NCBI GenBank assembly: GCA_036873135.1
Contig: JAPTYO010000035.1
Coordinates: 62,001 to 126,000, forward strand
Direction of reading: 5' to 3'
Source of the DNA: Clarkia xantiana subsp. parviflora
Lineage: Eukaryota > Streptophyta > Magnoliopsida > Myrtales > Onagraceae
Length of the DNA: 64,000 nucleotides
In this document: in pieces, positions 935 to 62,960 of the stretch
Layout: each line of letters starts with the position of its first letter
Position numbering within the stretch: position 1 is the first letter of the stretch
Made by a program: the position numbers and the translations under genes
The notes under the pieces: model-generated
What the model saw: the letters and a program-made list of their open reading frames with translations, nothing else
What the model was told of the DNA's origin: nothing
Databases searched by the model: none

Positions 935-1205
935 ATTTCGAAGATTTTTGGTCGTGAATAGTGTTTTTCGGGCGGACGTTTGGATTTTGGCGCATGAATA
1001 GTGTTTTTCAATCAGAAACGGTGCTCCGTGAAATACGCTGCTTTTTGGCTAAATTCCATCATCTAAGGCTTCAAAATTGCATTTTAATATTATTTCGGGT
1101 CTTTTTTGCAATTTTTAATTTATTCGGGACTTGTTCGTTATTTTCGGTTATTTCGGAGTTTAGGGTTTTCTATTTAAGACATTTTTGGACGAATTTGCAT
1201 GCAGA
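935..1205 (+). other. 3' non-coding/LTR remnant of the upstream chromovirus-like element
   Basis: AT-rich sequence follows the integrase stop and contains a repeated phrase (tgaatagtgttttt at about 955 and 994). It is probably the start of the 3' LTR, cut off where the minus-strand Ogre element begins near 1195-1210. No LTR end or target duplication can be seen. Confidence 0.45.
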
Positions 1206-7085: not shown

Positions 7086-7440
7086 ATGTATCTACATAAA
7101 ACAAACACACGAATAAGATGAACGAAGAAATTGTAAATTATGCATGTTTTGGTTTGAAAATTTTGCATGTCTGTTCATTCCATTTATAGACTTCGATTAC
7201 ATAGCAAGTGTACAAAAAGGGTATTCCTCAAAAGATTTAATCAATCGAAGTCTAATTCTAGAGATGTTTCACGCGGTCTTGCAGCTCATTGAATGCATTT
7301 GTTGCTTGTTCCTTGGTTCGAATGAAGGTCGAGGATATACATTTTGAAAATCTTTTCACTCTCCTCGTCCTTCGTTTGAACTTATCAAGGGTGCCACTCA
7401 ATGCAGCTACTCTGTCCTTGCATTTTTCCCAAGACTGGTC
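7086..7440 (-). other. Ogre spacer between ORF1 and gag
   Basis: About 355 bp without a convincing frame lie between the end of ORF1 and the gag start. No motif was recognised; it may hold leader or splice signals for gag expression. Confidence 0.5.
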
Positions 7441-28396: not shown

Positions 28397-28866
28397 TTAG
28401 GCCTGTTAGACTATATATATAATTAATGGTTTGATTGATTATTATATAGATATGTTAGGCGGTGGACTATATATATAATATATATATAGATAGCCTAATG
28501 GCGGTGGTTTGTGTACACTATATATATAGCGTGGGTTATGTTATTAGCTGCTGAGAGGAAGTCTTCTAGGGTTAGCTAGAATCAACGGAGAGCATAGGTT
28601 GTGTGCGTGAGTTCTATGCGTGTGTGAGATGTTTGGTTTAGGTGAGTGTGTTTAGAGCAACGTGTAATAGGTCTCTACATGTATTGTGAGAGTGAGTGCT
28701 CTATGTGGTCTCGTCTTGTAATCATCCGGTGTTGATTGTGCTAGTGAAGTGGTGCTCCTCCTTTGCCCGTGGACGTAGGTCGCGTTGACCGAACCACGTT
28801 AAATCTTGTGTTCTTTATTGCTTTCTTTTCATCCGTTTGTGAGTGTTGAGACAATCGATCCTAACA
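28397..28866 (+). repeat. 5' LTR of the copia element, remainder
   Basis: Continues the LTR from ttaggcctg to cctaaca. A TATATATA stretch near 28519-28528 is the likely core promoter. The Helitron lies upstream in U3. Confidence 0.92.
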
Positions 28867-28868
28867 AC

Positions 28869-28880
28869 TGGTATCAGAGC
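28869..28880 (+). promoter_or_regulatory. Primer binding site, initiator Met tRNA
   Basis: TGGTATCAGAGC, two bases after the LTR, is the standard plant copia PBS. Confidence 0.95.
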
Positions 28881-28907
28881 CAAGGAGATTCAACACGATC
28901 GCTGAAG

Positions 28908-43399: not shown

Positions 43400-43839
43400 C
43401 TAGGTGCTGCCCCGCGCTACGCTCGGGGCGAATGGCTTAATCGTATATGTTTATATATATATGTAGAAGATTAAAATTAAGATCAACCACAATTTTAAAA
43501 GAAAAAGACTTATGGAAATGTAACTTATGCTGTTGTGCCACGTTCAGATTAACATTTCATTGTTCTAAGTATAAACGTTCAATTATATTGATGAACCACG
43601 ACGTCTGTTAACTCCTAACTTAAATATAAATACATAAAATTTTCAATGTAAGTCATTAACCTATCCTCTAAAATTTGTTGCTATTCAAGTAAACTTTACT
43701 ACAAAATAATCCTCAAATTCAGTACTTTGTCTCAGTAAATTGAATAAATCACAGACTTTGTGTTCACAGCTAAGTATATTCCTTCTAAAAAAATCTACTA
43801 AGATTAACTATCTATCTAAAGCAAATTAAAGAAGATTAT
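43400..43839 (-). mobile_element. Helitron F, 3' end only
   Basis: CTAG at 43400 next to T, then a CCCCG(A/C)GC-type hairpin at 43411-43429 on the minus strand. Its 5' end should lie further right, but the Tat A insertion intervenes and I could not find it. The rest of this stretch holds no gene. Confidence 0.5.
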
Positions 43840-44573
43840 TGATGGATATACGCATGATTCGGGCTCGGTTTTAATTATTCGGACCTCATACACGCGCGTA
43901 AAACCCAATTTCGAGCTAACCGGGGGAAACCGGGCAAGTCGCGAACTTGCCCGGCACCCCCGGGGGGCTTACCCGGAATTCCGGGTAAGCTTAACACCCG
44001 GGGGTGTCGCGCACACCCCCCATTTCGTCCCGAATGTATAAGAGACCCGATTTTTAACTAACTCCTATGTGTCCGAGACCTACGTTTCAAAGGCGCGTGC
44101 GTCCCGCTCGTGACAGCCTCCTAAGACGAGCGTCAGAGTCCTTTTCCCAAAGCTCTCCCCTACATCCCGGTTCACATTTCCACATTGAACCGGGTCAAAA
44201 CCGGTTTACGGTCCAAGGTTGCCTATAAATAGCCACCTTGGGGGTAAACATTTTCAGGTCACTTTCGGGGTGAGAATCAAGAAAAGCTCTGACCTCTCTC
44301 TAAAAACTCTCTCTCTCTCTCTCTAGAAAACATCTGATGTTGATCGTCGGAGCGAGCGCACCAAGCACCCCCCCTCTCCACGGGTGTTGCTTGGTAATGC
44401 TCCTCTCGCAGGTGCAGAAGGACGGTGTATTAGAGAGCCCGAAGGACATACCGCTGTTCTGAAGACGAAGCTAAGGCCCGTACACGACTTTAGGGAACGG
44501 ACTTGGCTCGCACCCAACTCGAAGACTTCGACGAGTTATCCAGCGGGCAACCCGCAGTAACTAGGTCGAAACA
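43840..44573 (+). repeat. 5' LTR of Tat A
   Basis: TGATGGATATACGC...TCGAAACA. TATAAATA is at 44224-44231 and a (CT)9 tract lies in the start region. The U3 palindrome cluster is at 43930-44030. Confidence 0.95.
43930..44026. repeat. Palindrome cluster in the Tat A U3
   Basis: Three GC-rich inverted repeats in a row: 43930-43954 (ccgggcaagt arms), 43967-43990 (perfect, gcttacccggaa half-site) and about 44003-44019 (gggtgt arms). The 3' LTR has the same set at about 53274-53365. Confidence 0.88.
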
Positions 44574-44592
44574 CTTGGCGCCGTCTGCGGAT
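44574..44592 (+). promoter_or_regulatory. Primer binding site of Tat A
   Basis: cTTGGCGCCGTCTGCGG directly after the LTR, as in other Tat elements. Confidence 0.85.
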
Positions 44593-44611
44593 CACCCACA
44601 GGACCAAAAGC

Positions 44612-47600
44612 ATGGCAAGCAACGAGCAACCACCGCCGACTAAGACGAAGAAAAGAGGACTAGGACCTCCAAGGAAAACTCCGGCCCCGGAGTCAAGCAT
44701 GAGATCTCCTCCGCAGAGAGACCCCCCGCAAAGCCAACGCGAGGCCTCAGTCGCCTCGTCTATGCCAACAAGAAGCTTACACTCTCGGAGTAACGCGCAA
44801 GGAGGCACACAGCAAACCAACGCTCCTCCAGGCTTCGCCCATCAAACCTTCAACACGCAGGAGCAACCATACGGAATGCCAAATGCTGGAGCATACAACC
44901 AGGCACCAGGGGCACAGGCTGCACCTGCAGTCACCCCAGAAATGATGGGGGCACTCGAATAGCTGCTTCATCTGAGAGAGGCCCTGCGCAACCAAGGATA
45001 CGGGGCGCCACCACCCCCTCCCGCGCAACAAGCAAATATGCCCCCGCCACCAAGGCAGGCGCCTCCAATGAATGCACCTCAGCAGAGAGGCCCTACAATC
45101 TCAAAAACCCCGACCTTTCACGGGAATGCATAGCAAAGCAGGCAGTTCCCCCAACAAGGGACAAGACAGGAGCTCTCGCACTCCCAAACACCCTACCAAG
45201 CAGGGCCATTCAATGAAGAAGCCTGGAGGCAGCCGTCTCAAACATTCCAGGGATATCAAGGTGGATATTCTCAGTACAACCCGACGCAGGCGCAATTTCC
45301 CCAACAAGGCGCAAGCATGGAACAAGAAGCATACCCCCCAAATCAGGGTAACCCAGTCACCGGGTTGACGGAGGAGATGCTTGAAAAGCTGATCGAAAAG
45401 AAGATAAAGCAAAGGAAAATGAGAGGGATGAACACATTGGTGGACACCACATCCCACCCTTTCACTGACGAGCTGGTGTACAGTCGCGTCCCAGACGCAC
45501 TGTATAATCTAAGGCCGGAAAAGTACCGAGGCAAGTGAGACCCGATAGAGCATGTACAGCAGCATGAAGTAATGCTTTTGGGAAGGACAGACAACCCTCA
45601 CCACATAGCCATGACGTTCCCCCAAACGTTAGGCGGACCAGCTGCACACTGGCTCTTCTCCCTGCCAAAGAAAAGCATAGACTCGTGGCAGTCCCTCAAA
45701 GAAAAGTTCATCCAACGTTACATGGGAGAACGTTCGATTATCAAAGGATCAAATGCCTTGGATGACGTCAAGCAAGAGTGGAATGAGTCCCTCGCAAGCT
45801 ACTACATCCGATTTAATCAAAACATCTCGGAAATTCAAACGAACATCGCAGAGATAGAAATCATCCATGCCTTTGTTAGAAACCTGGGTAGGCACGGGTA
45901 CGATTTGGGCCAAAAGCTTTCTACAAGACCGGCGGAAACAATGGAAGAACTCGTGGCAAGAGTAAAAGAGTACATTGATGCTGAGCATTACAAGATGACA
46001 GCACGGGACAAGTGGGTTAAGCCCGGCAACAAGAAAGATGAAAGTAAGCCAGGCCCCCTGAAGCAGAACCAAACCCCCCAACAAAAACAGTGGACTCCGC
46101 CCCAGAAGAGAACATTCAACATTGAAGAAGACAAGAATCCAGACGTCAACACCATTGAGCTAATCCCTTTGAACGCTCCCCTGAGTGTCATACTGAAAGA
46201 AATGAAAGAGCAAAACCTCTGGAAAGAGCCATTCGGTTTCAGAAAGGGCCAGCTAGGGAAGGAGCAAGACAAGTGGTGTGAAAGCCACGAAGTCAACGGC
46301 CATGAAACTGACGACTGTAGAAGCCTTAAGTTCCAAATCAATCGAATCATACAAGAAGGCGGACTTAAGCACTACGTCGACCAAGGGGGAAAGATTGAGA
46401 AGGTGAAAAGAAAATTCACGCCAAAGGAGAAAGGAAAAGAGAAGACCAATGACAACCCCCCTCCTAAAAAGAGGGGAGTTATTAACGTCATTCATGGTGG
46501 TCCAGCTGCAGGAGGACAAGTCTCCAACACAAGAGATGTATACGCTGCGCAGGCAAACACACTCCCCTTGTATGGGAAAAGAAAGAAACCAGAAGAGGAG
46601 GACCCCGTGATAGGATTCTCGAGAAAAGACATGGCACACATCGTCTACCCGCATGATGACGCGTTAGTAATAACAATGGAAATCAACGGGTTCGATGTCA
46701 AAAGAATCCTAGTCGATGGAGGAAGCTCGTCAGACATCTTCCATGTCAAGGTCCTCGAACAGCTTGGAATGAAGAGAGAGGACCTGATGCCGGGAAATTT
46801 CCCGTTAGTAAGCTTTGCAGGAGCTGCTACATACCCACTGGGGATGATCACCCTTCCCACTGTGATAGGAGAAGGATGGAACGCAATGAAAGTCGACATC
46901 ACTTTTGTGATCGTCGAGAGCCTTGGCGCTTACAACGGAATTCTCGGAAGAACAACGATAAACCCCCACGAGATGGTGCCTTCAACGGCACACCAAAAGC
47001 TGAAGTACCGCTTAAGGGGAGGAGTTGGTGAAGTCTTGGGCGATCAGACGATAGCACGAAAGTGCTATGTCAACGCCTTAAGATGCAAGAACCGTCTGGA
47101 CATAGCAGTCATTGAAAGGGGACAGTGTTCCAAGTCTGAAGTGGAAAGGCGATTTGACGAAATGATGAGCAGAGGAGAAAGACTCCCAGCACCTCAAACC
47201 CCAATGCTCCCAAGCATATGGGACATCAAGCAAGGGGAGTCGGAATCCATCCAGAGTTACTTCAAGCGATTCGCCACAAACGCAACTTCAAGTTTGGCAG
47301 AGAAGTCAGCCGTGATCAATGCCTTTTTCCTGAACATGAACTCACCTACATTCCTCCTTTTTGGACGAACACAAGGGTGGAGAACAACCAAATCTATGGC
47401 CGACTTAAAAGAGAAGATGGAGACAGCAATCGAGGTCGCAAACGAGCTGGGGTGGTTCAGCCCACCTACAGAACAAGAGGAGGCGCCCGAACACAAGCGT
47501 GCAAGACAAGACTTGAACAACAACCAAGATGGCGAATGTACACCTCTGAACATAGAGGTGGAAGAGTTGTTCAAGACCATCCTGAAGGATGTTTTACCTC

Positions 47601-47788
47601 CTCCAAGCGAGATCCGGATTGCCTTCCTCGGGAAGAATCCAGAAATGTGGTGCCACTACCACAACAGATGGGGTCACAGCACGAATGGGTGCCCCTCTCT
47701 ACGTAACATAATCGAGGAACTGATCAAACAAGGAGCTCTGCGCTCCTACATTGCATGCGAGAAGCCAGCTTTATCAAACCGTCACTAA
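44612..47788 (+). pseudogene. Gag - protease - second gag-like block polyprotein of Tat A
   Basis: One frame of 1,059 codons interrupted by TAG at 44960, TAG at 45131 and TGA at 45536; from 45539 it is open. A Pro/Gln-rich leader precedes the gag capsid domain (about 45600-45990: HWLFSLP, DDVKQEWNESLASYY, AFVRNLG). A first CCHC-like motif follows (CESHEVNGHETDDC, 46277), then the retropepsin site LVDGGSSSD (Asp at 46715). A second gag-like block comes next (DIKQGESESIQSYFKRF to MADLKEKME, 47222-47425) with its own CHYHNRWGHSTNGC (47651). Normally RT would follow the protease; here the ORF ends instead. Element B has the same order. Confidence 0.85.
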
Positions 47789-48022
47789 GGGAATAATCCT
47801 TCCCCTATGACAGGAAAAATCACTATGTAATGGCAAGCTACCCCGGTCTAAAACCAGGAACGAGCCACATACATCATCAACAAAGGCCCTAGCTCTACAC
47901 GCAGAAAGGGCAAAAAACAAGAAAAGCCATCAAAAAGATATCAAAGCAAGACTAAGCAAAGCTCATGCCTATATACAAAACAAAGGGAGCGCGACGCATG
48001 AAAGGAGACAAAATAATTTCAT
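47789..48022 (+). other. Spacer after the Tat A polyprotein
   Basis: No frame or motif was recognised. This is where pol would lie in a complete element. Confidence 0.45.
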
Positions 48023-48595
48023 CAAGGATGTGAACGTACTAATCTATTTACATCCTTGCAAAAGTCGGGGGACAGTCGGTTCCTTAGGAATCCTCCCTCG
48101 CAAACAAATGCAAGTGTCGGACGTACTAATCTATCCACACTTCGCCACAATACAAGGATGTGAACATACTAATCTATTCACATCCTTGCAAAAAGTCGGG
48201 GGACAAGCGGATCATTAGGAATCCTCCCTCGCAAACAAATGCAAGTGTCGGACGTACTAATCTATCCACACTTCGCCACAATACAAGGATGTGAACATAC
48301 TAATCTATTCACATCCTTGCAAAAAGTCGGGGGACAAGCGGATCATTAGGAATCCTCTCTCGCAAAAAAATACAAGTGTCGGACGTACTAATCTATCCAC
48401 ACTTCGCCGCAGTATCAAGTATGTGAACATACTAATCTATTCACATCCTTGCAAAAAGTCGGGGGACAAGCGGCTCCTTAGGAATCCTCCCTCGCAAACA
48501 AATGCAAGTGTCAGACGTACTAATCTATCCACACTTCGCCGCAATATCAAGTATGTGAACATACTAATCTATTCACATCCTTGTAAAGGAAGACA
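48023..48595. repeat. 131/132-bp tandem repeat, four units plus a partial
   Basis: Units start at 48023, 48154, 48285, 48417 and 48549. Each has two related half-units with (a/g)(c/t)actaatctat cores. The first half can fold with 11-bp arms (aaggatgtgaa / ttcacatcctt) and the second with shorter arms. Confidence 0.95.
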
Positions 48596-48969
48596 AGCAG
48601 TTCAACAAGGATCATCCTCCTTACAAAACCACAGATGCCGGTAATACTAACTCATCCGCACCCCGCCACCGACAGGGATGCAATTTCCTAAGGAAGACCA
48701 TCGGATTAAGGAAATCGGCCTGTCAACAGAGCAACACTCTTCCAAAAAGAGAACAAGTTATAGAGACACCAATAAAGGAAGATGCAAAATAATACTAAGT
48801 ATTATACCTTTCTAACATCTCATGTCAGGCATATATATATATAATATAGCAGGACTAAAAAGTAAAGACATCCAGCCAGCATAAAAAGTCAAGCCCGGGA
48901 CGCACCCCGCCAAAATCTCACCCATGCAAGGGGAGCAACCATATATACACAAGAAAAAACAAAGAAAGA
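48596..48969. other. Spacer between tandem repeat and aORF 3' end
   Basis: No gene is seen; a short TA run lies near 48833. The plus-strand and minus-strand transcripts would converge here. Confidence 0.4.
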
Positions 48970-51309
48970 TCAACCTGACCCAACGTCAGGAGCACCAGAG
49001 CCAAAAGCGTCAGCCATAAAAACATCATGCGCAGGGCTGTTGAAAACACCACGGCGATCGTCACCAGCAGGGACAGACAACTGTCCCGTCAAACCACTCG
49101 CTTCACCCACATCGCTCGTTCGGATCCCCGCAATAGCCCCGAGGGCATAGCCAGTATATGGACCAGCACTCTGGAAAGGAAAATCGGGGGCAAGAGAGTA
49201 TATCCTCCTGAAGTAATCCACAGAGAAAGACTCCATGCGATCATCACGTGCCTTCTCGAGAAGTTTGGAGTAATCGGCTGTAGTAGGAAACTCAATCATC
49301 CCAAGCTGATCACCCAGGGCAACATGAGACTCCTTAGTCTCCTTCAGCGCCACAGCATGCGCCTCCTCATCGACCTTCTCCTGGCGCAGTAGGGCAAACA
49401 GCTCCGCCTCCAGCTGAGACGCACAATCCTGACTTCCCTTGAGATCAGCGGAAGCCTTAGAAGAAGCATCTGAATGTGCGCGCGCCTTCTCCCTCAACAC
49501 AACGACATCCTGAGACAAGTGCTCATGACGATCCTGCAGACCCCTCGTCTCCTCAACAAGCTCAACAACAAAGGAGGAAAGGTTGGTCATCACGGCATTC
49601 ACCTGCAACAACAACACAAGCACATCACACACAAAGAAGCCAGACAAACATGATAGATCCAACATAAAAAGAAAACAACGTACAGGAGCAAAGCGCGCGA
49701 GCGAATCCTCAACACACTTCAAAGCAGCCTCAGGATCCCGGGGGCACGTCTTGCGATCAGCCGGCGGAACAGACAGCTGAACCACACGCACACCAACAGC
49801 AGGCATGCTCAAGGAAACATCCTTGGAAAAGCGAATAGCAGACTGAGAATAGGGAGTCCACTCGTTCCCGGACACATCCCGATCAAGCCGACACATCAGA
49901 TCAGACTTGCGAAGAGCTGGAGGAGTAGGAACAACTACATATCAAAAGCAAACACATTAGGACAAGGCAAACTATACCAATACAACAAGAAGTCAACCAC
50001 AGTCACCTGCCAAGGGAGGCACCTCCACTGAACGCCCGCTCCCCGACCGGGGGACAGGCATGGTCGAATCTGCATACATTGGCCCCTTCCCTTTGTCGCA
50101 GGAAGGAGCAAGAGGCATGCCGGCAGACGTCGACCTCCTAGGATCGCTCGGGGAACGGACGTCAGCATCATGCTCTCAGACAGGTGCAACTCCCCCCGCC
50201 GTCGGAAATACCAAGCCTGCAAAGACAACCACAAAAAGACCATTAGCATGTTAGCATGGGGAAAAATCCCAACGAAACCTTTAAAAGGCACAAGTCCCAT
50301 ACCCGGGCCAACAGGAGGAGTTTCGCCAAGGCCGGGAACAGTCTGAGGAGACCCGCCTGCAACTCCACCCTGTAAACAGGGGCGTCTGTTAAGAAACCAA
50401 CCTACAAGGAAACAGGAACAAATGTTATGAAACTTCAAAACATACCAACTCATCCCCCGAAGGACGTACATGAATGCCCGCCGCGAGCAGCTCGGCGTCG
50501 GAAGCACGATAAAGGGGGCTGTACTCCCCCGCCCTATTCGCCGTGTGAATCTTCTTCAAAGCAACCTTGTCTGTATCGGAGAACTCCTGAAAACGCGGAA
50601 CGGGATCGGCATCCAATATGTGAGAGGTCGTCCAAGTCGTGCCCGCATCCTTTATAAAAAAGTACTGACACTTCCATTTGTTTTGGGAAGTGTCCGATCT
50701 TTCGCAGAACCGCGCCTCAGTATTCCACCCCGCCCTGCGCAAGCCAAGGGAGGAGAATCCCTTCTCAGTCATGTGAGGCCAACGCAAGCTGAAAGTACAC
50801 ATCCCAGACTCATCTGCCTTACCCAGGCGGTAGAAGGCTCGAAAAAGCGCTATCGAGTAATCCCAAGAGTTTAGATGACATTGCACCCGGAAACATGTCG
50901 AAGCTCTAAACCCCGGTGGAGTGATAGAGACGGGAGAAATCCTGTAATATCGACAAAGGCGGACCAGATCCTAACAATAAGGAAACCGCAGCCCTTCTCG
51001 GAACTGTGAAAGATAAACAGCCTCATACTCAGCCGGAGGAACGGTGGGCCGACCAAATTCGACCCCCTTCACGACGTCCCAAGGATACGTGACCTCCATG
51101 CTAGGACACCAGCCCCGGGTCGACACATAGAGATCAAACTTGGAACGTGGAAGCTTGTTGGGAAAAAACATTTGGGTCTTCTCCAGTATCACGCGATCAC
51201 CCGACGGTCCCAAAAGCACACCGCTTCGAGACCCAGAGTCGGAATCCATGGTGCCCTCATCAACCTCCCCATCAATGTTATCCAAAACAGAGTGATGAGA
51301 CTTACTCAT
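48970..51309 (-). pseudogene. aORF of Tat A (PF04195-like protein), five coding exons
   Basis: Coding exons on the minus strand are 51309-50446, 50369-50303, 50216-50007, 49934-49684 and 49602-48970, all GT-AG. Their lengths sum to 2,025 bp, exactly 675 codons, and each join keeps homology to the copy at 14794-17000. Exon 1 holds the conserved core (REGLRFPYC, FRAFYRLGKADE, CQYFFIKDAGTTW). Exon 3 holds SDPRR...CDKGKG, a low-complexity linker. Exons 4-5 hold GVRVVQLSVPPADR and a coiled coil. Nonsense codons at 50973-50971 and 50178-50176 break it. Localisation and function are unknown. It is antisense to the element's genomic RNA. Confidence 0.82.
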
Positions 51310-52515
51310 TGCGTGAAGAAGCCGAAACCGTTGCCTACCAGGAACACTCTAAGTATCAGAGACGCGCGCTTGCAAGCCCGTCAACCAAACCCTGCAAAAA
51401 CCATACATAACCCAATCAAAAACCAAGGCAACACATCAACCACATTCATTGAGTCCTTTTCAAGGACATCCAACCCAACGGACCAACTGTCCGCAAGCAA
51501 ACAGCTAGGGACCCTCCCGCTCGGGAGTCAAAAATCCCTACGCTCGCCAAAGGCCTAGGCCACCTACTAATCAAATTTCCATATATTTGTGCAATGTGAT
51601 ACAGGTATTCAAGCATTCCGCAAAGCGATAAGTTCAAGAGCTAAAGAAATCCAAAACATGCAAAGTTGGCCATAATTACCAAAATGCCATCCGACCACAT
51701 TTCGATCAAATTTTATCCCCAAAACGGCCCGAGGCTCCGGGGGCACATACAAGCAGCTCAAATACATTTAAGCAAGCCCATTACATGCCACGGGGAGACT
51801 TACCCCTACCCGAACAATCCGATGAGCACTCGGGTCAACTAAGCCACCGATAAGCACGAGCTACCAAGCAATCACCTAAACTCCGGGGACATGGCTATCC
51901 ACTCACAAATAATCGTGGAGTCATTATTACACTTGGGGGCATCATATCAAGTCACCCACATCAAAATACAAAGGGTCGAACTTTTCGCTCGAATATGTCC
52001 GATTTCGAACCTCCACGATTTCCCCTCGGTTATCCGAAACCTAAGGGCCTCTTCACAAAGGGAGTTCACTAACCATAACTCTACCTATCTACATTTAGAG
52101 TTTTGCCAAAAACGGATTTTGAAAAATCAAGCCAAAATTTCACTTAGGCATTTCGTCGAACACCTATCATGCACCTTATTAAAATGAAAAATGTGCAGCC
52201 CTAAAGGTCCAATTGACATCAAGCAAAGGAAGGAGAGGACATTACCGATCAATACCCGACAAGAAGGACTCGAAAACGGGTCGAATTGAGCCCGAAATCG
52301 ACCCGTAAACAGTGCAGCCGCCGCCCGCCTTGCGCCGCCGCTCCCGCCGCCGCCTCGCCGCTGCTGGGCCGCCGTGACCTCGCCGGTGGTAGCCCTGGTG
52401 GTGGCCGGCCGAAATGGGGTCTCACTAGCACCCTAAAGTGAATTCCTAAATCACTACCTTAGCCCCTCCAAAACCCTCTCAACAACCTATTCAAATATTG
52501 ATAGTTTTATAAACT
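51310..52515 (-). promoter_or_regulatory. aORF leader: promoter, GC-rich first exon and intron
   Basis: Minus strand gttTATAAAActatc near 52508 is a good TATA box. A GC-rich segment rich in gccgcc (52430-52300) matches in position the leader exons of the copies at 13225 and 55900. A likely acceptor (cttgcaag) lies about 60 bases before the ATG at 51309. Confidence 0.6.
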
Positions 52516-53173
52516 ATCACAAAGGAGGTTTACTACACAACCTAGCAAGCACCATACATCCAAGAGGTACACTCACATCCACCCTCCATTTTTTAAAGTT
52601 GTTGATAACTTGGATTTTCACCATCAAATGACTTAGCTAAATTTAACTAAGTCATTTCAAATGGTCTCAACTACTTGAAAACATTATTTTTAAGATTTTT
52701 CGTGTCAAGTCCGTTACATGTGATTTTCCAAACCCGGCGGTATTTCGTTTACTAAAACCGTCGTCTCGCCGTCACGACGGCCGTCTCGGACGACGGACTC
52801 CCGAAAACCACCACATGGCATGAAAAACGTTTTATCAAAACTTTCATGAGTGGTTATCACTTTGATACATTTAGTCGTGGCATGAACTTTCCATATTTCT
52901 TTGATCATCGTGCGAACCCGAAAAATTTCGTGCGCGCTCGCGCCTTAATTCTCCAAAAAATCACATTTATCATATTACTCGCAGTCCGTTGTGCTACTAA
53001 CCCTTTGCGCAGTTATCAAGCACGACCATCTCAAAAAACTAAGGCAAGGAACTCGTCTAAGCCGCGTGTATCCACCATTGGTAGGTCAAAACTCAAGGTG
53101 AGCAGACGACCCGAATCACGCGTATACCCTATCTTAGAATAGAGTTAAACAAAGGTCAGACCATTATTTAACC
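52516..53173. other. Spacer between aORF promoter and 3' LTR of Tat A
   Basis: No gene was recognised. It likely contains upstream elements of the aORF promoter. Confidence 0.4.
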
Positions 53174-53183
53174 GGGGGGCAAA
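53174..53183 (+). promoter_or_regulatory. Polypurine tract of Tat A
   Basis: ggggggcaaa directly before TGATGGATATACG. Confidence 0.85.
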
Positions 53184-53916
53184 TGATGGATATACGCATG
53201 ATTCGGGCTCGGTTTTAATTATTCAGACCTCATACACGCGCGTAAAACCCAATTTCGAGCTAACCGGGGGAAACCGGGCAAGTCGCGAACTTGCCCGGCA
53301 CCCCCGGGGGGCTTACCCGGAATTCCGGGTAAGCTTAACACCCGGGGGGTGTCGCGCACACCCCCCATTTCGTCCCGAATGTATAGGAGACCCGATTTTT
53401 AACTAACTCCTATGTGTCCGAGACCTACGTTTCAAAGGCGCGTGCGTCCCGCTCGTGACAGCCGCCTAAGACGAGCGTCAGAGTCCTTTTCCCAAAGCTT
53501 TCCCCTACATCCCGGTTCACATTTCCACATTGAACCGGGTCAAAACCGGTTTACGGTCCAAGGTTGCCTATAAATAGCCACCTTGGGGGTAAACATTTTC
53601 AGGTCACTTTCGGGGTGAGAATCAAGAAAAGCTCTGACCTCTCTCTAAAAACTCTCTCTCTCTCTCTAGAAAACATCTGATGTTGATCGTCGGAGCGAGC
53701 GCACCAAGCACCCCCCCTCTCCACGGGTGTTTCTTGGTAATGCTCCTCTCGTAGGTGCAGAAGGACGGTCTATTAGAGAGCCCGAAGGACTTACCGCTAA
53801 TCTGAAGACAAAGCTAAGGCCCGTACACGACTTTAGGGAACGGACTTGGCTCGCACCCAACTCGAAGACTTCGACGAGTTATCCAGCGGGCAACCCGCAG
53901 TAACTAGGTCGAAACA
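53184..53916 (+). repeat. 3' LTR of Tat A
   Basis: 733 bp matching the 5' LTR; TATAAATA at 53569-53576; followed by the target duplication attat. Confidence 0.95.
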
Positions 53917-53921
53917 ATTAT

Positions 53922-54345
53922 TGCAGCTAATTTTTGCAAAAAAAGCACGTGTCGATGAAAAAGTTGACCTTTCCTTCAGATTTTTTTTACGGAATTACCC
54001 ATTTCTCTCTCTTTTTTCGTCCACCTCTTTATCATTATATTTATACATTTTTACTTAATAAATTTATCTCTTAGTTTAAAATTATTTTTACATTTATTTA
54101 TCCACCTCTTTTAGCGATTTATCCAAATCATATTACTACTTAACCTTATTAATAATTAATTATCAATCATTTATCCGTGTATTCTAAAAAAAATTAATAT
54201 AATATTATTGTTTTACATTTTATGTAGATATTTGTTTACACTAATTAATATTTTAAAAAATATATACATTTTATTATTGATTAATTTGTTATAAAAATGT
54301 CTATAAGTTAGAAATATATGTTATAAACAAAAGAAAAAAAATTTC
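53922..54345. other. AT-rich target DNA between Tat A and Tat B
   Basis: No feature was recognised; it is continuous with the AT-rich DNA left of 43835 once Tat A is removed. Confidence 0.5.
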
Positions 54346-54350
54346 CTCTA

Positions 54351-55205
54351 TGTTAGGTTCCGGGATTTGGGTCAATGGGTGGTCGGCTCAAATCTCGTTC
54401 CTCACTGGAGGGGTGGATGATCCGGTCCTCTCGGGTTGCCCTGTCTTAGCTTGCGTCCTTCCTTCTGTCGCTTCTCTTCTCCTTGCGCCCTGCAGAAGGG
54501 GCAGTACCAGACACAGAGAGGGGGGGGGGGGGGGTGCCTGGTGAACCCTCTTCGATGCCTAAGTCAGTATCGTTTTTAGAGAGATAAAGCTAGAGAGATG
54601 TCAGAGCAAAATAATCCAAATTGCCAAGATGTCCAAATGAATTGTGAAGGTGGGGTATTTATAGGCAACGGTGTCATTAATGTGGCTTAATGACATCGTT
54701 AACCCTAAAACACAGTTAATTAACCTTTAAACGCATAATTAAGACTTTAGGATACGGAGAAGGTAGGCGGAGTAAACCGATTATGGGAGTCCACAAGTGG
54801 TGTCGGGGCCCTTTGGGGGAAGGGAAATCCGACCCCCAAGGGTAGGGGTTGGGTGAGGGCACCCTACCCCTCCTAGGGAGGATGGGGTTGGCCAACCCCA
54901 TCCCTCCTAGGAGAGATCGGGTTGGCCGACCCGATCTCTCCTAGGAGAGGTCGGGTTGGTCCACCCGATCTCCCCTAGGGGAGATCGGGTCGGCTGACCC
55001 GATCTCCCCTAGGGGAGGTCGGGTGTGGCCACCCAACCTCACCTAGGTGAGTTTGCCTTGGCCGGACGAGCGCTCCGGCCTCGTCCGAGCCGTTGATGTT
55101 CTCGCGAAATGTTCGGGTTGAAGTTTCGATTTACAATCGTTAATGGGATGATAAAAATACAACGGTTCGGAAGTCAACGGGTTCAAATTGGGCGTATATC
55201 CATCA
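54351..55205 (-). repeat. 3' LTR of Tat B
   Basis: Minus strand TGATGGATATACGCCC (55205) to CCTAACA (54351); TATAAATA at 54656-54663; a run of palindromic units at 54865-55050. Confidence 0.92.
54865..55050. repeat. Tandem palindromic units in the Tat B U3
   Basis: About five units of ~33-36 bp, each a palindrome of the type cctagg-gag-atcggg-ttggcc-and back. The 5' LTR (61089-61235) has one unit fewer. Confidence 0.9.
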
Positions 55206-55222
55206 CATGCCCCCGAGTCAAC
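55206..55222 (-). promoter_or_regulatory. Polypurine tract of Tat B
   Basis: Minus strand gactcgggggcatg directly before TGATGG. Confidence 0.75.
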
Positions 55223-55790
55223 CAATGGCTTAACCCTTGATTGACTCTATTTCAGGGTGGTATGATACGTGCAATTTGAAACCGGGGTTTTACCATTCGT
55301 CTGAATGTTTGCTTACCCATGGATGCGTGTCTCCGACTCTGCCCCCTGCCTTATGAGATAGAGGAGTTGTAAACGTTAGAGTAGCGCGGACGTATGCCTA
55401 AGCACGCGTCCGTCTCAGGTGGGAGCAATAAATCTATCTTTGCTACCGGCGTATACTTAAAAAATTCACCCTTGCACAGGGGCGCAATACGAATGCAACT
55501 AAGTAACTTACGCTTCAAATTCGTGCCGGGATTCTATCTAAGTGAGGAAAAATTTAATTTTGGCCAAATTTTTTTCCTAAGTATGAAATGTTCAAGAATA
55601 AACCTAACTTGATAGTTTTTCTAAGTATGGAGATATACTTAGCCATAGTTTTTTTTTTGGCCAATACTTAGCCATAGTTGAAAGGGATAAAAATGATGGT
55701 TTTTCCTTGGCCCTTAGATCTCATTTAAAGATAGATGGAGGGTGGTGATTAAAACTCTTTAAAAAACCCTATCATCTTTTCAATATAGAG
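55223..55790. other. Spacer between 3' LTR and aORF leader of Tat B
   Basis: No gene is seen. A duplicated phrase around tacttagccatagtt lies at about 55635 and 55665. Confidence 0.4.
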
Positions 55791-57615
55791 GAGAGTTAGA
55801 AAAATACCTTAGGGAGTCACCATAGCCACCATCTTCCCTCTTTACTCACCCTTGGAGAACAAGAAAAAATTGAGAGCACCCCCAAGGTAAGGGCCGGCCA
55901 AAATTCCGGCGAGAGACCCGAAATTCCGGCCAGCAGCTCCGGCGGGAGGTGACCACCAGCACGGGACGGAGACGACTAGTGGATTAGCAGCTCGAGACGG
56001 CGGCGCGACCTCCAGCGGCTGACGGACGAAGACGACGCGGCACGAGCTTGGCCGGTGGAGGGCGGTGGCCAGACGAGCAGCGGCGTCGGGAGGCTTCAAC
56101 GGCGAGTTCGTCTCCGACGACGACAGCGCCAAGTCCGGCCAGGACTGTCGACAACGGGACCAGGCAGCTCCGGCGTGGTCTGGGGCGGACTGCGGCGACG
56201 AAGGGACGGCTGGGAGCGACTCCGGCGACGACGGAATTGGGGCTCCGGCGAGGGGCTGATTCCGACCGACTTCGAAATTCGAATTTCGGACCCGTTTATC
56301 ACATCGGGTCGGGTTTTCTGAAGGTCCGCTCTTTTCCTTTCTGTTACCGCATAAAACGTTGATTTTTGAGTCGTTGATACTTGATTGCCGATGCTTGATT
56401 GCCGATGTTTGATTGCCGAAATTTGATTGCCGAAATTTGATTGAAAGTGGGATTGCCGTGGATAACCGTCGATAGTTGTGGATTTGGAAAAAAATTTTGC
56501 CGGTCGTCCGGATATAGTTTCTTGTTCGATTGGACTATCCCGGTTTTGAATTTGATGTCGTATCGCCGTTGGTGTGTTAATCTTCGTTGGAGGGCGTAAC
56601 GGAATTTTGCCTAAAACCCGACTTTAGGCTCGGATAAAATTATTCAATTTGGTTGTCGTGGTGTCCTTGGATCTTTGGTTGTTGTCGTTGGTCGGGTGTC
56701 GGAGTATTTCCGGTTCTTCGGAAATTTTTCTTTTCTTGATATTTGTCGTGTCGTGGCAGGTACTGTATTCCTGGTGGTGTCCGCGCACACAGACTCTACA
56801 TAGGCGTCGCATCCTCCGAAGGATGAGTGAGTTCCTTTTCTCTTCCTTTTTGGTCGCATTACTTCCTTTCCTATTGCTAGCTTAGTGTCGTGATCTTCGT
56901 TGGGGTGTTAGTCGAAACTTGATTCGAACTTTGGGATTTCCTGCTACCTTTGCCTTAGGTCTCGCTGCCCTGTCGGAGAACCATCTCACTAGGTCCGATT
57001 ACAATGAGCACGTTACCTTAGGAGATATCTGTCCCCTAGATGAGCCTCTGTATCCTTTTCTCCCCTCCTTGGGGAATACCCGCGAGACGGTGACGGAGCC
57101 TCCTAGAGGGAAGGTTGCCGTGTACCCCTCCCAGATTCGATTTGGGTTGAGGTTGCCTTACTGCGATGACCTCATAGAGTTGAGCAGGTTTTTCAGGATT
57201 TCTCCTGTGAGCCTTGCCCCCAGTGCCCTTCGTGTTTGGGTGGGCTTTCGGGTGTTGTGCCATTGGTACTCCTGGAAGTACTCCCTCGTTCTGTTCCGAT
57301 GTTTCTACCGGTTCCAATACCAGACGAAGGTGGGGTTTGCGAGTTTCGTAACTCGCTATCCGACCTTCAAGGATCCCCGATTTGCTGATTTCGGGTTGAG
57401 TGGGGTCGAGTGGGATACCTCTCTCCGCTTCGTGGCCCGGAGTGACAACTCGGCCAGTCACTGGGCTAAGCATTACTTCTTCATTACGGATCGATACGTC
57501 ACTTGGTCGGTCTTGAATGAAGATCGGTCCGATGGTTGGCCTGCTTTCGGGGAGTTCTCTTCAGTTGATTTAGAGACTATGAAGATCATTCACGAGAGCA
57601 ACAATGCTTTGTCTA
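55791..57615 (+). pseudogene. aORF of Tat B (PF04195-like), C-terminus deleted
   Basis: A GC-rich leader exon (about 55800-56330) and intron end at a CAG acceptor at 56759. The ATG is at 56823. A second intron (GT at 56827, TTAG ending 56958) joins ATGA to GTCTCGC in frame. The open frame then runs from MSLAALSENHL to about 57605. The core is the best preserved in the window: LRLPYCDDLIELSRFFRISP, FRCFYRFQYQTKVGF and KHYFFITDRYVTWSV. Sequence after 57605 is antisense gag, so the linker and coiled-coil exons are lost. No stop codon interrupts the remaining core. Role unknown. Confidence 0.78.
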
Positions 57616-60518
57616 GCTTTTCCTTGAGCTCTCTCATCGTGCTCGTCATGACCATCTCATAGAGCCCCCCATAGGCCTCGAATGAGTTTGGATGCATGTT
57701 TCTAATAAATGCTCTGACGGTTTCTCCTCTTGTGGTGTCCATGTTGGCACCATAACTGGAGAATCTCTGGAAATAGCTTGATATTGACTCCCGCGGCATT
57801 TGCTTGATATCATCGATGTGACGGAAGCCTCTTAAGATGGAGTCACTTGTTCTTTTCCCCTCTATGGTGTCTGGCTGCCAAGGTATGGCTGTCACTTTCA
57901 CAGCTTTGCTCCTGTGTCTCCTCTTAGGCACTGTTTGAAAAAACTGCCTGCTCAAGCGGAGTACCACTCCATTCTTCATCTTTCCCTGCCTTTGCCTCCT
58001 TCTCCTCCTCTTTCTATCTTGGTTGGCTCCTACCATGACCACAGCCACTGTGTCTGTCCCGTGTGATCTACGTCTCATGGAGTTGACATAGCACTGCCTT
58101 GCGGTGCGTTGATCACCTAGGACTTCTCCGACTCCATTCTCAGTGATGTACTTCAGCTTCTGGTGTACAGTGGATGGCACGATTTCATATGGGTTTATGG
58201 TTGTCCTTCCTAGGATCCCATTGTAGGCTCTCAGGCTTTCAACCACCACAAAGTTAACATTCACTTTCAGCTGTGTCCATCCTTGGCCCATGGTCACCGG
58301 CAGGGTTATCATTCCCAGGGGGTAGCTTGTTGCCCCTGAGAAGCCAACTAGAGGGAAGTTGACTTGTTTGATGTCTGCCTTGGTTTTCCCTATTTCTTCT
58401 AGGACTCTCAAGCTTAGGAGGTCAGCCGAGCTGCCCCCATCCACCAAAATTCTCTTTACATCAAAATTATCAATGTCTATTGTGATAACTAGAGCATCGT
58501 CATGTGGGAAGACGATGTGGCTCTTGTCCTTCTCTGAGAATTCGATCTTCATTTTCTTCTCCTTCTCTTGGCCTTTTCCTCCACCTCGGCACTGAACCCA
58601 GTTTTGATGCGTAAACCTCCCTTGCATTAGCAGTTGGGCCACCTGACGCTACTCCCCCGTGTATCATGTTTATGGTCCCTCTCTTGTTGGGTGGAGGATT
58701 GTAGTCTGCTTTGCCTTTGCCCTTGTCTCTGTGTGATGGCCCTAGCTGCATGCTGTTGCCCCCATGATCCACGAACTGCTTTAGGTCTCCCCTTTGGATG
58801 GCATTGTTGATGCTTAGCTTTAGGCTGAAGCATTCGTTCGTGTCGTGCCCGTAAGCTTCATGGTTGTCGCACCATCTATCCTTGTGATTCCCCACCATTG
58901 GGGCTCTCCACCTTGCAGGGGGTGACCAGAGCTTCTGGTTCCGCATCTCTTTGAGGACAGTAGCTGGAGTGGCGTTCAATGGGACGAACTTGATTACATT
59001 TATTTCTCTGGGCTTTAGTGGTTCGCCCATTTGGTTTCTTTGCTGGGGCGGACGCCATTCCTGCTGCCTTGTGTGCTGAGGTGCCTGGGGTGGTTTGCCT
59101 TTGTTCGGCTTTGCATTGTCTTCCTTGGTTGCTTGAATCTTGGCTTTCTTACTTGCCCTGTGCCTCTCCAGGTCTATATGAGTTTTGACTCTTCCTGCAA
59201 GCTCTTCTAAGGTGCTTGCTGGCTTCTTGGGCATCTTTTCTGCCAGTGTGGACCCGAAGCGGCCTAGGTTTCTGATAAAGGCTCGTATTACCTCACCCTC
59301 AGTGATGTCGCCCTGGATTTCTGCGATATTTTGATTGAACCTAGTGTAGTAACTGGCCAGAGATTCATCATATTCTTGTTTCACATCATCGATGGAGCCT
59401 GTGCCTTTGAGGAGTTTCCTCTCCCCTAGATATCTCTGCAGGAACTTCGCCTTTAGCTGCTCCCATGAGTGGATGCTTTCAGAGGGTAGACTGAAGAACC
59501 AGTGTGAGGCCACCCCTGATAGGGTGTTTGGGAACAGGAGTGCCTTGTATCTTTCATCAGTGGTCCTCCCAAATAGGGAGGCCTCATGCTGTTGGATATG
59601 CTCTAGGGGGTCTCCCTTCCCATTGTACTTTGCAATTTGCACTGTGTGCAGGGAGTCTGGCACCCTGTTCATCTCCAGTTCCCTTGTGAAAGGGTGGTTC
59701 GTTTTGTCACTTAGACAATGCAAGTTGGTTTTCTTTGACTCATTCATCTTCCGGGTTATCATTGCTTCTATTTCTTCCGGAGTGATCAATATCGGTGTTG
59801 GAGTGTAATTCCTCTGATAGCCTCCGTGGTTGTAGATAGGACTTCCCGGGATCCCTTGTCCGTATTGATACGGGTTGTAGGTGTATCCTTGGTGTCCCTG
59901 CTGGGGTGCTTCGTAGAATTCTTGCCTCCTTGGAGGTCTTGCTTGTCTTTCCTCCCCCAGTGGGGTGTAAGCCCTTGCGTTCTGCTGTTGCCTAGGAGGC
60001 ACGAATTGTTGCCTTCCCTCTTGGGGTGGCACCTGGTAATATCTTCTTTGCTCCTCTTGCTGCCCTGCTCGAGGGTGCGAGTGGTGCTCTTCCGTTGGGA
60101 TCTGCTCCTCTTCATGAGCTTCAGTGTGTGTCCCCTGGGTGTATGCCGGCCTTGCATATGTTGTGTGGGCGTGGTTGCCATCCCTTTAGGCCGGCATCCC
60201 ATACGGATACCCTTGGGGTTGCGCCTCATAATAATACCCCTCAGGGGGTGCCGTGTGCTGGGACGGCACTCCCTGTTGTTCTATTTATCTCTGTGGCCTT
60301 CTTGCCCGAGGTGTGGAGGCTGTGGAGGACTCAGCCCCAGCTGGGCGTGAGGGTCCTCCCTCCTGGTTGTTCTGTTGAGGAGGCTGTGGTATATCTTGTG
60401 GTTCTGGTTGCATTGGCTGCTTCCCAGGGTTAGGCTGCCTCCCTGGGGGTATAGGGTCTCTCCTTCTCCCATTGCCCCCTGGTGGGCGGTGGTGCCTAGA
60501 CACCCTGCTGTTCGTCAT
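57590..60518 (-). pseudogene. Gag - protease - partial second gag block of Tat B
   Basis: Starts at ATG 60518, 33 bases after the PBS, with a Pro/Gln-rich leader broken by stops (first near 60285). From 60032 to 58500 the frame is open: gag domain (HWFFSLPSESIHSW, DDVKQEYDESLASYY, AFIRNLGRFG) and CCHC-like CDNHEAYGHDTNEC (about 58870). A frame change near 58590 leads to the open frame 58642-57590 with retropepsin site LVDGGSSAD (Asp at 58441-58439). Then comes a second gag-like block (DDIKQMPRESISSYFQRF, TMRELKEKLDKAL) that is cut at the deletion point. Same order as Tat A. Confidence 0.85.
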
Positions 60519-60550
60519 TGCTCGTGTTATAGCCAGGCTTTCTGTCCGAA

Positions 60551-60569
60551 GCCCGCAGACGGCGCCAAG
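60551..60569 (-). promoter_or_regulatory. Primer binding site of Tat B
   Basis: Minus strand cTTGGCGCCGTCTGCGGGC directly after the LTR end. Confidence 0.88.
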
Positions 60570-61391
60570 TGTTAGGTTCCGGGATTTGGGTCAACGGGTG
60601 GTCGGCTCAAATCTCTTTCCTCACTGGAGGGGTGGATGATCCGGTCCTCTCGGGTTGCCCTGTCTTAGCTTGCGTCCTTCCTTCTGTCGCTTCTCTTCTC
60701 CTTGCGCCCTGCAGAAGGGGCAGTACCAGACACAGAGAGGGGGGGGGGGGGTGGTGCCTGGTGAACCCTCTCTGATGCCTAAGTCAGTATCGTTTTTAGA
60801 GAGATAAAGCTAGAGAGATGTCAGAGCAAAATAATCCAAATTGCCAAGATGTCCAAATGAATTGTGCAGGTGGGGTATTTATAGGCAACGGTGTCATTAA
60901 GGTGGCTTAATGACATCGTTAACCCAAAAACACAGTTAATTAACCTTTAAACGCATAATTAAGACTTTAGGATACGGAGAAGGTAGGCGGAGTAAACCGA
61001 GTATGGGAGTCCACAAGTGGTGTCGGGGCCCTTGGGGGGAAGGGAAATCCGACCCCCAAGGGTAGGGGTTGGGTGAGGGCACCCAACCCCTCCTAGGGAG
61101 GATGGGGTTGGCCAACCCCATCCCTCCTAGGAGAGATCGGGTTGGCCGACCCGATCTCTCCTAGGAGAGATCGGGTTGGTCCACCCGATCTCCCCTAGGG
61201 GAGGTCGGGTGTAGCCACCCAACCTCACCTAGGTGAGTTTGCCATGGCCGGACGAGCGCTCCGGCCTCGTCCGAGCCGTTGATGTTCTCGCGAAGTGTTC
61301 GGGTTGAAGTTTCGATTTACAATCGTTAATGGGATGATAAAAATACAACGGTTCGGAAGTCAACGGGTTCAAATTGGGCGTATATCCATCA
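60570..61391 (-). repeat. 5' LTR of Tat B
   Basis: 822 bp; TATAAATA at 60876-60883 on the minus strand; palindromic units at 61089-61235. Confidence 0.93.
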
Positions 61392-61788: not shown

Positions 61789-62667
61789 TTATCCCTGCAC
61801 CACCTGGGCCAGGGACCTCACGCTCTTCAAGAGGCGCCGACGACCTTGGTACTGCTGAATAAAACGGTCGTGCATATCAGCCCAACTGGAGATGCATCCT
61901 GGGGGCAGGCTGAAGAACCACGTCAGGGCCCTCTCAACAAGTGTGCCTGTGAATAAAACGCACACTATGTCCTCGTTTGGGGCTCTGCCTAGACATGCCA
62001 TGAGATGCTTCTGGACATGATGAACTGGATCTCCCTCGCCATCATACTCCTTAATTGTGGGGATACCCAACCCTGGCGGGGCGAGGGTGTCTATCAATCG
62101 GGGAACAAAGGGATGGGTGGATCGATCCCTCAGTTCCGACATCATCGGCTTCTGGTCCCCCATGCAGATGTTCACGATCTTCACCACCTGGTCGGGGGTG
62201 ATAGGACCATTAAGGGGAATGGTCCTATGCTGCACCGGTCCAGGCGCATCGATCACAAATCGCTCTGACTGAGCGAGCTCCTTACCCTTGTCCTGGTTTC
62301 TGGGTTGGGCCTCCTGCACATTCTGAACCTCCCTCGGCCGAGGCGGAGGCACCTCCTCCTCCTTCTTGGCAGCCTCTCTCCACTCTAGGAGAGCCTCCAT
62401 GGCCTCCAAGAACATCGGCATGGCATCCGCCACAGCCTTCGCCAGGTCCACGTTTGGAGGAGCATCCTCCTCCCTATTCTCTTGGTGTCGAGCAGTATCC
62501 TCAGGAACCTCATTGTGCCCACCTGTTCGGGAAACCTCAGCAGGGAGATTTTGGTCCACAATACGCTCCGGCGGCCCTGAATTCAGAGTTCCGGCAGTGT
62601 GACGGGAACCACCAGATTGTCCTTGCTTTTTCTGCTTGCCAGCCGCCATTGAACGAGTAGAAGTCAT
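61789..62667 (-). pseudogene. Gag of Tat C, C-terminally truncated
   Basis: Starts MTSTRSMAAGKQ, 20 bases after the PBS, and stays open for 292 residues. A charged and Pro-rich leader leads to the gag capsid start (STHPFVPRLID, EYDGEGDPVHHVQKH, ALTWFFSLPPG, FIQQYQGRRRLLKS). The same blocks occur in Tat A and B gag. The ORF ends where similarity is lost near 61780, so the C-terminal half of gag, the zinc motif, protease and everything after are missing. Confidence 0.82.
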
Positions 62668-62686
62668 TTTTGGCTTTTCGTTACGA

Positions 62687-62705
62687 TTCCCACAGACGGC
62701 GCCAA
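62687..62705 (-). promoter_or_regulatory. Primer binding site of Tat C
   Basis: Minus strand TTGGCGCCGTCTGTGGGAA directly after the LTR. Confidence 0.9.
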
Positions 62706-62960
62706 TGTTGGATCACGGTTGGAACTCCGGTGCGGTCTTGAAGGAAATCCGAAATCCTTCGCTCCACGTAATCCTTCAAGAGGGGAATAGACCGGGCGGT
62801 GACCCAGAATCCCTCTCCGATGCTTAAATGAAAATCTCGTGGCAGGCAAGGCAAGCGAAAGTATGAGTATGTAAGTGCGTATATGTGATCTGAGGTAACT
62901 TCTTCCTTTTTATAGGAGAGGAGTTACCCCAGTTACCTGATGAATCGCCAGGGCAGTTAG

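What the first reader, a model, noticed from the sequence alone, without database searches (positions are those of the whole stretch)
43840..61391. Two different Tat-type elements share a gag-protease-gag2 plan without RT or integrase
In Tat A (44612-47788) and Tat B (60518-57590) the frame after the protease does not enter RT but a second gag-like block. In A it reads DIKQ-ESESIQSYF-RF...MADLKEK and in B DDIKQ-ESISSYFQRF...TMRELKEK. Both resemble the C-terminal half of their own gag1 (DDVKQE-ESLASYY-RFNQN...TMEEL). In A the block carries its own CCHC-like motif; B is cut before that point. The LTRs of A and B belong to different families, so the arrangement is probably inherited and maintained rather than a one-off duplication. 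This suggests a long-lived non-autonomous lineage with a modified Gag that uses pol from other Tat elements. I do not know a published description of a post-protease gag duplicate.
Basis: partly seen in the sequence, partly recalled or inferred. Interest (0 to 1): 0.82.

Follow-up and report, generated by a model that had tools for sequence, protein, structure and literature searches.

The report
Plant retrotransposons with a second Gag
Related families of plant retrotransposons that have lost their own copying enzymes carry, in that place, a second piece of the particle-building Gag protein that selection has kept, and I found no earlier description of it.

Summary
Elements A (43840-53916, +) and B (54351-61391, -) both read gag1-protease-gag2, with no RT, RNase H or integrase found. 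Gag2 is a capsid C-terminal domain (CA-CTD); in A and the B family a C-x2-H-x4-H-x4-C zinc knuckle follows. It is homologous to gag1 (1e-16 over 207 aa) and its model resembles retroviral CA-CTDs. In the host genome all 150 scored matches to gag2 of A, of B and of a third family F were family-level copies (lower bounds). Frames of 1075-1078 aa (A) and 1105 aa (B) recur. Gag1, PR and gag2 trees all read (B,(A,F)): one origin, then inheritance. Gag2 is under purifying selection in A and B (pN/pS 0.26, 0.28; shifted frames 0.88-1.49). Autonomous-type elements on the same contig have PR followed by RT; one shares LTR start, polypurine tract and primer site with A. Best reading: a long-lived semi-autonomous Retand-type lineage that keeps its own Gag and protease and borrows pol. 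What gag2 does is inferred. New variant of a known kind.

The parts
43840..44573 (+). Element A 5' LTR (98.0% identical to the 3' LTR); target duplication ATTAT at 43835-43839
44576..44590 (+). Element A primer binding site TGGCGCCGTC..., 2 bp (CT) after the LTR
45539..47788 (+). Element A open frame of 749 aa: gag1 (from within the capsid domain region), protease, gag2. Frames of 1075-1078 aa in other copies fit window 44561-47788 by length
   Evidence: 8 of 8 fetched long-frame copies are open over these 749 codons
45617..45883 (+). gag1 capsid domain (Retrotrans_gag, E 3e-17)
46277..46318 (+). gag1 zinc knuckle CESHEVNGHETDDC
46604..47098 (+). Protease block (LVDGGSS...GILGRTT)
   Evidence: homology to PR regions of plant gag-pol proteins; no Pfam protease model matched
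47207..47773 (+). gag2: CA-CTD beginning at the motif WDIKQGESESIQSYFKRF, linker, zinc knuckle
   Evidence: (Gag_p24_C 6.9e-5, below cut-off)
47651..47692 (+). gag2 zinc knuckle CHYHNRWGHSTNGC
48060..48584 (+). Four units of 131 bp in tandem between the coding region and the 3' LTR (a frequent Retand trait)
   Evidence: trait from PMC11963269
50425..51348 (-). Antisense ORFs; the 50425-50970 ORF is 42% identical to the B antisense ORF (2e-40), its own Transposase_28 match is only 0.071
53184..53916 (+). Element A 3' LTR; polypurine tract GGGGGGCAAA just before it, target duplication ATTAT at 53917-53921
60570..61391 (-). Element B 5' LTR (94.3% identical to the 3' LTR)
58503..60185 (-). Element B gag1 frame (Retrotrans_gag E 2e-13; zinc knuckle CDNHEAYGHDTNEC)
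58055..58558 (-). Element B protease block (64% aa identity to A)
57593..57850 (-). Element B gag2 CA-CTD; this copy is truncated before the knuckle that other B-family copies carry
56886..57662 (+). Antisense ORF of B with Transposase_28 (PF04195, E 1e-5, 26.1 bits against a cut-off of 26.2)
54351..55205 (-). Element B 3' LTR

Best explanation
A and B belong to a semi-autonomous Retand-type (Tat, Ty3/gypsy) lineage. A Gag-protease-Gag2 polyprotein replaced Gag-Pol once, before families A, B and F split: pol was lost and a second gag-derived module took the position after PR. SHOWN: the architecture, its shared origin, the high number of gag2 matches in three families, and purifying selection on gag1, PR and gag2 in A and on PR and gag2 in B. 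INFERRED: the element builds particles from its own Gag and PR and has its RNA copied and integrated by RT and integrase of autonomous Retand elements with the same primer site, a like polypurine tract and the same LTR start. Because gag2 keeps the capsid dimerisation domain and (selectively clearer in B) the RNA-binding knuckle but not the CA N-terminal domain, it most likely co-assembles through CTD-CTD contacts, recruiting the partner's Gag-Pol into particles and/or packaging the element's own RNA.
Against: No expression, protein or particle data. No partner is identified: RT-bearing elements here have gag1-PR about 40% identical to A, and the LTR bodies are unlike. A-family gag2 NC is weakly constrained (pN/pS 0.59 +- 0.20; random placement as low in 318 of 2000 for mid+NC). 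Between B and its close copy L021, gag2 shows no constraint (dN 0.046, dS 0.044 on about 12 changes). The gag2 model has mean pLDDT 63; gag1 could not be modelled well (52.8). The origin of gag2 (own or foreign gag) is undecided. F's knuckle was not seen. Three further PR loci on the contig are followed by neither RT nor gag2; one of them (L009:5119-5591) has an F-like primer site.
Confidence: 0.7

Rival explanations
1. [quoted passage not shown]
For: Same kind of content as a C-terminal half of Gag; PR lies just upstream, so release is plausible; p22/p18 interferes with particle assembly through Gag (PMC4599808 abstract and passages; PMC8458377 abstract and outline). Selection on gag2 is real.
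Against: Ty1 p22 comes from an internal transcript and is identical to the Gag C-terminal half; gag2 is a diverged paralogue fused in frame. A self-inhibitor in families with at least 150 gag2 matches each is hard to maintain. No cleavage site was tested.
Confidence: 0.2
2. Gag2 was captured from the gag of another (autonomous) Retand element by template switching, not duplicated from the lineage's own gag.
For: The AU test does not reject gag2 grouping with autonomous-type Retand gag (p 0.195) or with Escallonia gag (p 0.105; 0.095 CTD and 0.73 NC). The NC part of A gag2 is nearest to Escallonia gag (44%). Over CTD+NC together the profile of other Tat gags scores slightly better than A/B gag1 (2e-19 against 3e-17).
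Against: The best trees put gag2 with gag1 of the same families (98/98; 90/82 for CTD; 81/79 with more rows), and the CTD profile matches A/B gag1 better than other Tat gags (4e-11 against 1e-7).
Confidence: 0.35
3. Gag2 is a neutral relic carried along inside mobilised copies.
For: The window copies are individually damaged; gag2 evolves faster than gag1; no constraint is visible between the close pair B and L021.
Against: pN/pS 0.26 and 0.28 for all gag2 in two families, with 0.88-1.49 in shifted frames; amino acids and frame kept between A and B although third positions differ at 63%.
Confidence: 0.04
4. The block is the ordinary protease-RT linker of Tat elements, mistaken for gag.
For: It sits at the linker's position, after PR.
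Against: hhalign to 23 linkers 0.1%, to gag 98.9-99.2%; seven RT-bearing loci have 202-248 bp between PR and RT matches and no such block; 0 of 55 database proteins have it.
Confidence: 0.01

Closest known systems
Semi-autonomous GAG-Pro elements RLG_Sabrina_SA and RLG_WHAM (wheat; PMC9744471, passages seen)
   Same: High-copy gypsy elements whose intact frame holds GAG and protease; no RT or INT; thought to be mobilised by an autonomous partner while supplying GAG.
   Different: The passages seen describe no second gag-derived block after PR (shorter Sabrina variants instead replace GAG-Pro with other short proteins, two of them likened to viral capsid-formation proteins). A and B have Retand-type antisense ORFs.
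RLG_Quinta / RLG_Cereba pair (einkorn; PMC11302176, abstract and passages seen)
   Same: A non-autonomous partner keeps GAG, has lost RT/INT, and shares primer site and LTR termini with an autonomous partner.
   Different: [quoted passage not shown] it is centromere-specific.
Retand lineage (PMC11963269, abstract, passages and Discussion seen)
   Same: Antisense TRP28 ORFs and tandem repeats between coding region and 3' LTR; some recently active members are non-autonomous.
   Different: In the passages seen, its 10 of 63 defective clusters lack GAG, GAG+AP, or RH+INT; none is said to lack RT or to have a second gag.
Ty1 p22/p18 (PMC4599808, abstract and passages; PMC8458377, abstract and outline)
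   Same: A C-terminal piece of Gag that interacts with full-length Gag.
   Different: A Ty1 element, internal transcript, sequence identical to Gag; gag2 is a fused, diverged paralogue.

Membership tests
Retand (Tat, Ty3/gypsy) | RT phylogeny places the element in Retand | not testable with these tools
   No RT was found in A, B or L021/L022. The PR tree puts A, B and F in a 13-row group with RT-bearing elements of the same contig and P0001, P0024, P0028, P0031 (91/88), which is supportive only
Retand (Tat, Ty3/gypsy) | Antisense TRP28 (PF04195) ORF between coding region and 3' LTR | tested here: met
   B: PF04195 1e-5, 0.1 bit under cut-off; A: PF04195 only 0.071, but 42% to the B ORF, 2e-40; L022 (B family) 98% to B
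[quoted passage not shown]
   A: four 131-bp units; none reported there for B, which is shorter
Semi-autonomous GAG-Pro element | Intact GAG-protease frame in many copies | tested here: met
   23 of 150 A matches in frames of 1075-1078 aa, 39 of 150 B matches in frames of 1105 aa. Sequence was read for 8 A copies (749 codons) and 8 B copies (PR-gag2 only); the rest is by frame length
Semi-autonomous GAG-Pro element | No RT, RH or INT in a full-length copy | tested here: met
   A (43840-53916) and the B-family element at C35:189343-200204 (L021/L022): no hit of 62 plant gag/pol proteins outside gag-PR-gag2; L011 and L018 give INT hits with queries from the same proteins
Semi-autonomous GAG-Pro element | Mobilised by an identified autonomous partner with matching termini | tested here: inconclusive
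   Same primer site core, like polypurine tract and same LTR start (TGATGG) as the element at C35:153358-162425, which has gag, PR, RT, RH and INT; LTR bodies differ; no transposition data
Ty1 p22-type restriction factor | Trans-dominant inhibition of particle assembly | not testable with these tools
   Needs experiment
[quoted passage not shown]
   A gag2 26% identical to gag1 over 207 aa; B gag2 48% over 50 aa
Ty1 p22-type restriction factor | Made from an internal transcript | not tested
   No transcript or promoter analysis was done

The most novel reading that the evidence does not exclude
Gag2 is a purpose-evolved capture device: a CA-CTD-NC module carried on the C-terminus of Gag-PR where Pol used to be, which docks onto the partner's Gag-Pol so that a pol-less element builds its own particles and loads them with foreign RT and integrase. 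This would be a dedicated parasitism domain made from capsid, kept in at least three families.
Probability: 0.35. Interest if true: 0.82.

Novelty: new variant of a known kind. Interest (0 to 1): 0.64.

Why it matters
How non-autonomous LTR elements obtain pol in trans is open. Here is a lineage that lost pol, kept its own Gag and protease under selection, and fixed a capsid-derived module at the place pol left. That gives a concrete, testable candidate for a pol-recruiting (or partner-poisoning) domain, in families with many long open frames. Surveys that start from RT would miss such elements.

Tried and rejected
Gag2 alone against 5.8 billion proteins: 652 candidates, none at E <= 0.01. Viral and prokaryote contig scans: 92 and 115 pattern matches, none confirmed. 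PDB by sequence: nothing for A; for the gag profile only p24 at E 1.6-2.2. The gag1 model was too poor to search with. The gag2 upstream linker shows no CA-NTD signal (0.1%). The NC-only tree is unresolved. The hhalign of whole alignments A1 and A4 followed PR into the linker and says nothing about gag2. YN00 failed and NG86 dS was undefined between A and B. L001-L008 gave no gag1, PR or gag2 profile hit. In print: in searches no listed title or abstract start described a post-protease gag duplicate; only open-licence full texts are held, and of the six papers opened I saw abstracts, outlines, passages or single sections, none in full.

Rows dropped: CTD/NC trees kept 22 of 62 database proteins, then 12 (where the broken L009 and L019b gags of the contig were also left out). 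PR tree: 21 of 28 near-complete database PRs kept, and PRs of L009, L013 (first), L019 and L012 not used. Of the 14 fetched A-family copies, 8 were chosen for long frames and 6 not; the 8 alone give gag2 0.29, the 6 with A 0.22. Of the 14 B-family copies, 8 had 1105-aa frames and 6 did not; the 6 alone give 0.23. Contig survey: 22 loci of 10 kb and the window, 284 of 505 kb.
Full report
OBSERVATION. Element A spans 43840-53916 on + (LTRs 98.0% identical, 5-bp target duplication ATTAT); element B spans 54351-61391 on - (LTRs 94.3% identical; flanks CTCTA and CTCCA, one mismatch). A's 749-aa frame (45539-47788) holds Retrotrans_gag at aa 27-115, a protease-like block and then a second gag block; Pfam finds Gag_p24_C at aa 558-590 (6.9e-5, below its cut-off) and, in B's second frame, the C-terminal part of Retrotrans_gag (0.01, below its cut-off). 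BLASTP: A gag2 to A gag1 1e-16 over 207 aa including the knuckle; B gag2 to B gag1 3e-12; A gag2 to B gag2 5e-12. None of 1000 shuffles reaches any of five such scores.

NOT THE LINKER. Plant Tat proteins found by search go from PR to RT through a short linker. Of 62 database proteins (19, 43), 55 have a PR match reaching its end region, 32 of those have at least 100 aa after it, and 0 have a gag2 match there. On contig C35 (284 of 505 kb read, window included) seven loci have PR followed by RT, 202-248 bp apart, and no gag2 between or after: L011, L016 (two), L018 (two), L009, L028. L011 also has RNase H, integrase and antisense TRP28; integrase was also found in L018, L028 and L010/L016. Three further PR loci (L009:5119-5591, L013:2688-3056, L019:6834-7196) are followed by neither RT nor gag2 at E 1e-5.

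GENOME. The window lies in an unnamed 695.6 Mb assembly. A's gag2 (209 aa): 22,315 first-look candidates, 150 scored, all 150 at 93-100% identity and essentially full length; 13 of 150 have a stop inside, 49 of 150 lie in stop-free frames of at least 700 aa, 23 of 150 in frames of 1075-1078 aa, the length of window 44561-47788. B's gag2 (90 aa): 18,275 candidates, 150 of 150 scored at 91-100%, 1 of 150 with a stop, 39 of 150 in a frame of exactly 1105 aa. In L021, gag1 to gag2 lie in one frame, with three stops. A third family, F, was found at C35:31038-32917 (L013/L014); 60 aa of its gag2 CTD give 150 of 150 at 80-100% (4,969 candidates; A is 55-59% there), with 22 of 150 carrying stops by my count and a longest frame of 905 aa, so it looks older. 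Only 150 matches are scored per search, so these are lower bounds, and they are gag2 matches, not verified full elements. L012 holds a degenerate relative in which gag1 NC and gag2 NC follow each other with no PR match between (weak PR pieces lie downstream). F's knuckle was not seen: the F copy read is interrupted after the CTD.

SHARED ORIGIN. With elements of the same contig added, gag2 sequences form one clade (100/99) and gag1 sequences another (97/94), both with topology (B,(A,F)); the PR tree gives (B,(A,F)) at 98/97. A gag1 and A gag2 as sisters are rejected (p 6e-53). So the plan was present in the common ancestor and was inherited. Whether gag2 was copied from the lineage's own gag (81/79) or from an autonomous-type Retand gag (p-AU 0.195) stays open.

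SELECTION. Fifteen A-family copies (14 fetched plus A): pN/pS gag1 0.10, PR 0.17, linker 0.43 +- 0.15, gag2 CTD 0.15 +- 0.05, gag2 NC 0.59 +- 0.20, gag2 all 0.26 +- 0.05. Shifted frames give 0.88 and 1.49 for gag2. Placing the same variants at random gives as few nonsynonymous changes in 0 of 2000 trials for gag2 CTD, 4 of 2000 for all gag2, but 318 of 2000 for mid+NC. Fifteen B-family copies (14 fetched plus L021): PR 0.09, linker 0.28, gag2 CTD 0.24, mid+NC 0.32, all 0.28 +- 0.03; shifted frames 1.06 and 0.94; random placement 2 of 2000 (CTD), 48 of 2000 (mid+NC), 0 of 2000 (all). Copies not chosen for long frames give 0.22 (A, 7 copies) and 0.23 (B, 6 copies). Against this, B and its close relative L021 alone show dN about equal to dS in gag2 on about 12 changes.

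HOW IT PROBABLY WORKS. Shown: a lineage without detectable pol keeps gag1, PR and gag2 under selection. Inferred: the product acts largely on its own RNA, since otherwise selection on each copy's protein would not persist; RT and integrase come from autonomous Retand elements. One such element on the contig (C35:153358-162425, LTRs 99% identical, with gag, PR, RT, RNase H and integrase; no TRP28 found in it with the B query) has the LTR start TGATGG, a GGGGGCAAA polypurine tract and the primer site TGGCGCCGTC, as A does; B's tract differs slightly. Gag2, being CTD plus NC, is best placed to co-assemble with Gag and bind RNA. Recruitment of Gag-Pol or packaging is my first choice, p22-like interference the second.

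COMPARISON. Semi-autonomous GAG-Pro families (RLG_Sabrina_SA, RLG_WHAM) and RLG_Quinta are the nearest kind (passages); Retand supplies the antisense TRP28 ORF and tandem repeats; a review of additional ORFs in plant LTR elements speaks of antisense and env-like ORFs in the passages seen (PMC7264820); Ty1 p22/p18 is the nearest functional analogue of a C-terminal Gag piece. No title or abstract start listed by searches-34, 65, 66 and 115 described a post-protease gag duplicate. I call it a new variant of a known kind.

Noticed in passing
window 61789-62712 (-), primer site at 62704: A further Retand-type gag (primer site spacing as in the RT-bearing elements) breaks off right at the capsid CTD start, next to a long T run and AT-rich DNA.
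   Followed up: partly
L045-L058, PR-gag2 linker (B family); window about 57851-58054 (-): The B-family PR-gag2 linker carries a strongly basic stretch (such as KKRRRRQRQ) and is itself constrained (pN/pS 0.28); A's linker has no such stretch. It could be a nuclear localisation or RNA-binding motif.
   Followed up: no
L012:3530-4153; L024:4154-4918: L012: gag1 NC followed by gag2 NC with no PR match between. L024: two gag1-like NC units in tandem.
   Followed up: partly
G000:C15:10594003-10594629 (+) and G000:C27:2113856-2114482 (-): Two A-family gag2 matches lie in frames longer than the usual 1075-1078 aa (1429 and 1124 aa); not read.
   Followed up: no
L007:732 (-): A TGATGGATATACACCC start after a CGGGGGCAAG tract: an LTR of the gag2-clade type next to a different gag.
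   Followed up: no
window 14713-15354 (+): TRP28-type ORF of another Retand-like remnant (46% to the B antisense ORF).
   Followed up: no
window 1160-7091 (-): A different Tat-like element with gag (774 aa), PR-like and RT pieces in separate frames; tblastn with gag2 found only a weak match inside its own gag.
   Followed up: partly
window 54844-55063 and 61046-61249: B LTRs contain overlapping palindromic repeats (arms 68-176 nt, 70-81% complementary).
   Followed up: no
window 28803-30587 (+): 594-aa frame that looks copia-type: gag with a CCHC knuckle followed by a protease-like piece (by eye, no profile search).
   Followed up: no
database protein P0005: A Tat-type gag-protease fragment is filed under Serratia marcescens (2-kb contig); probably plant contamination.
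   Followed up: no
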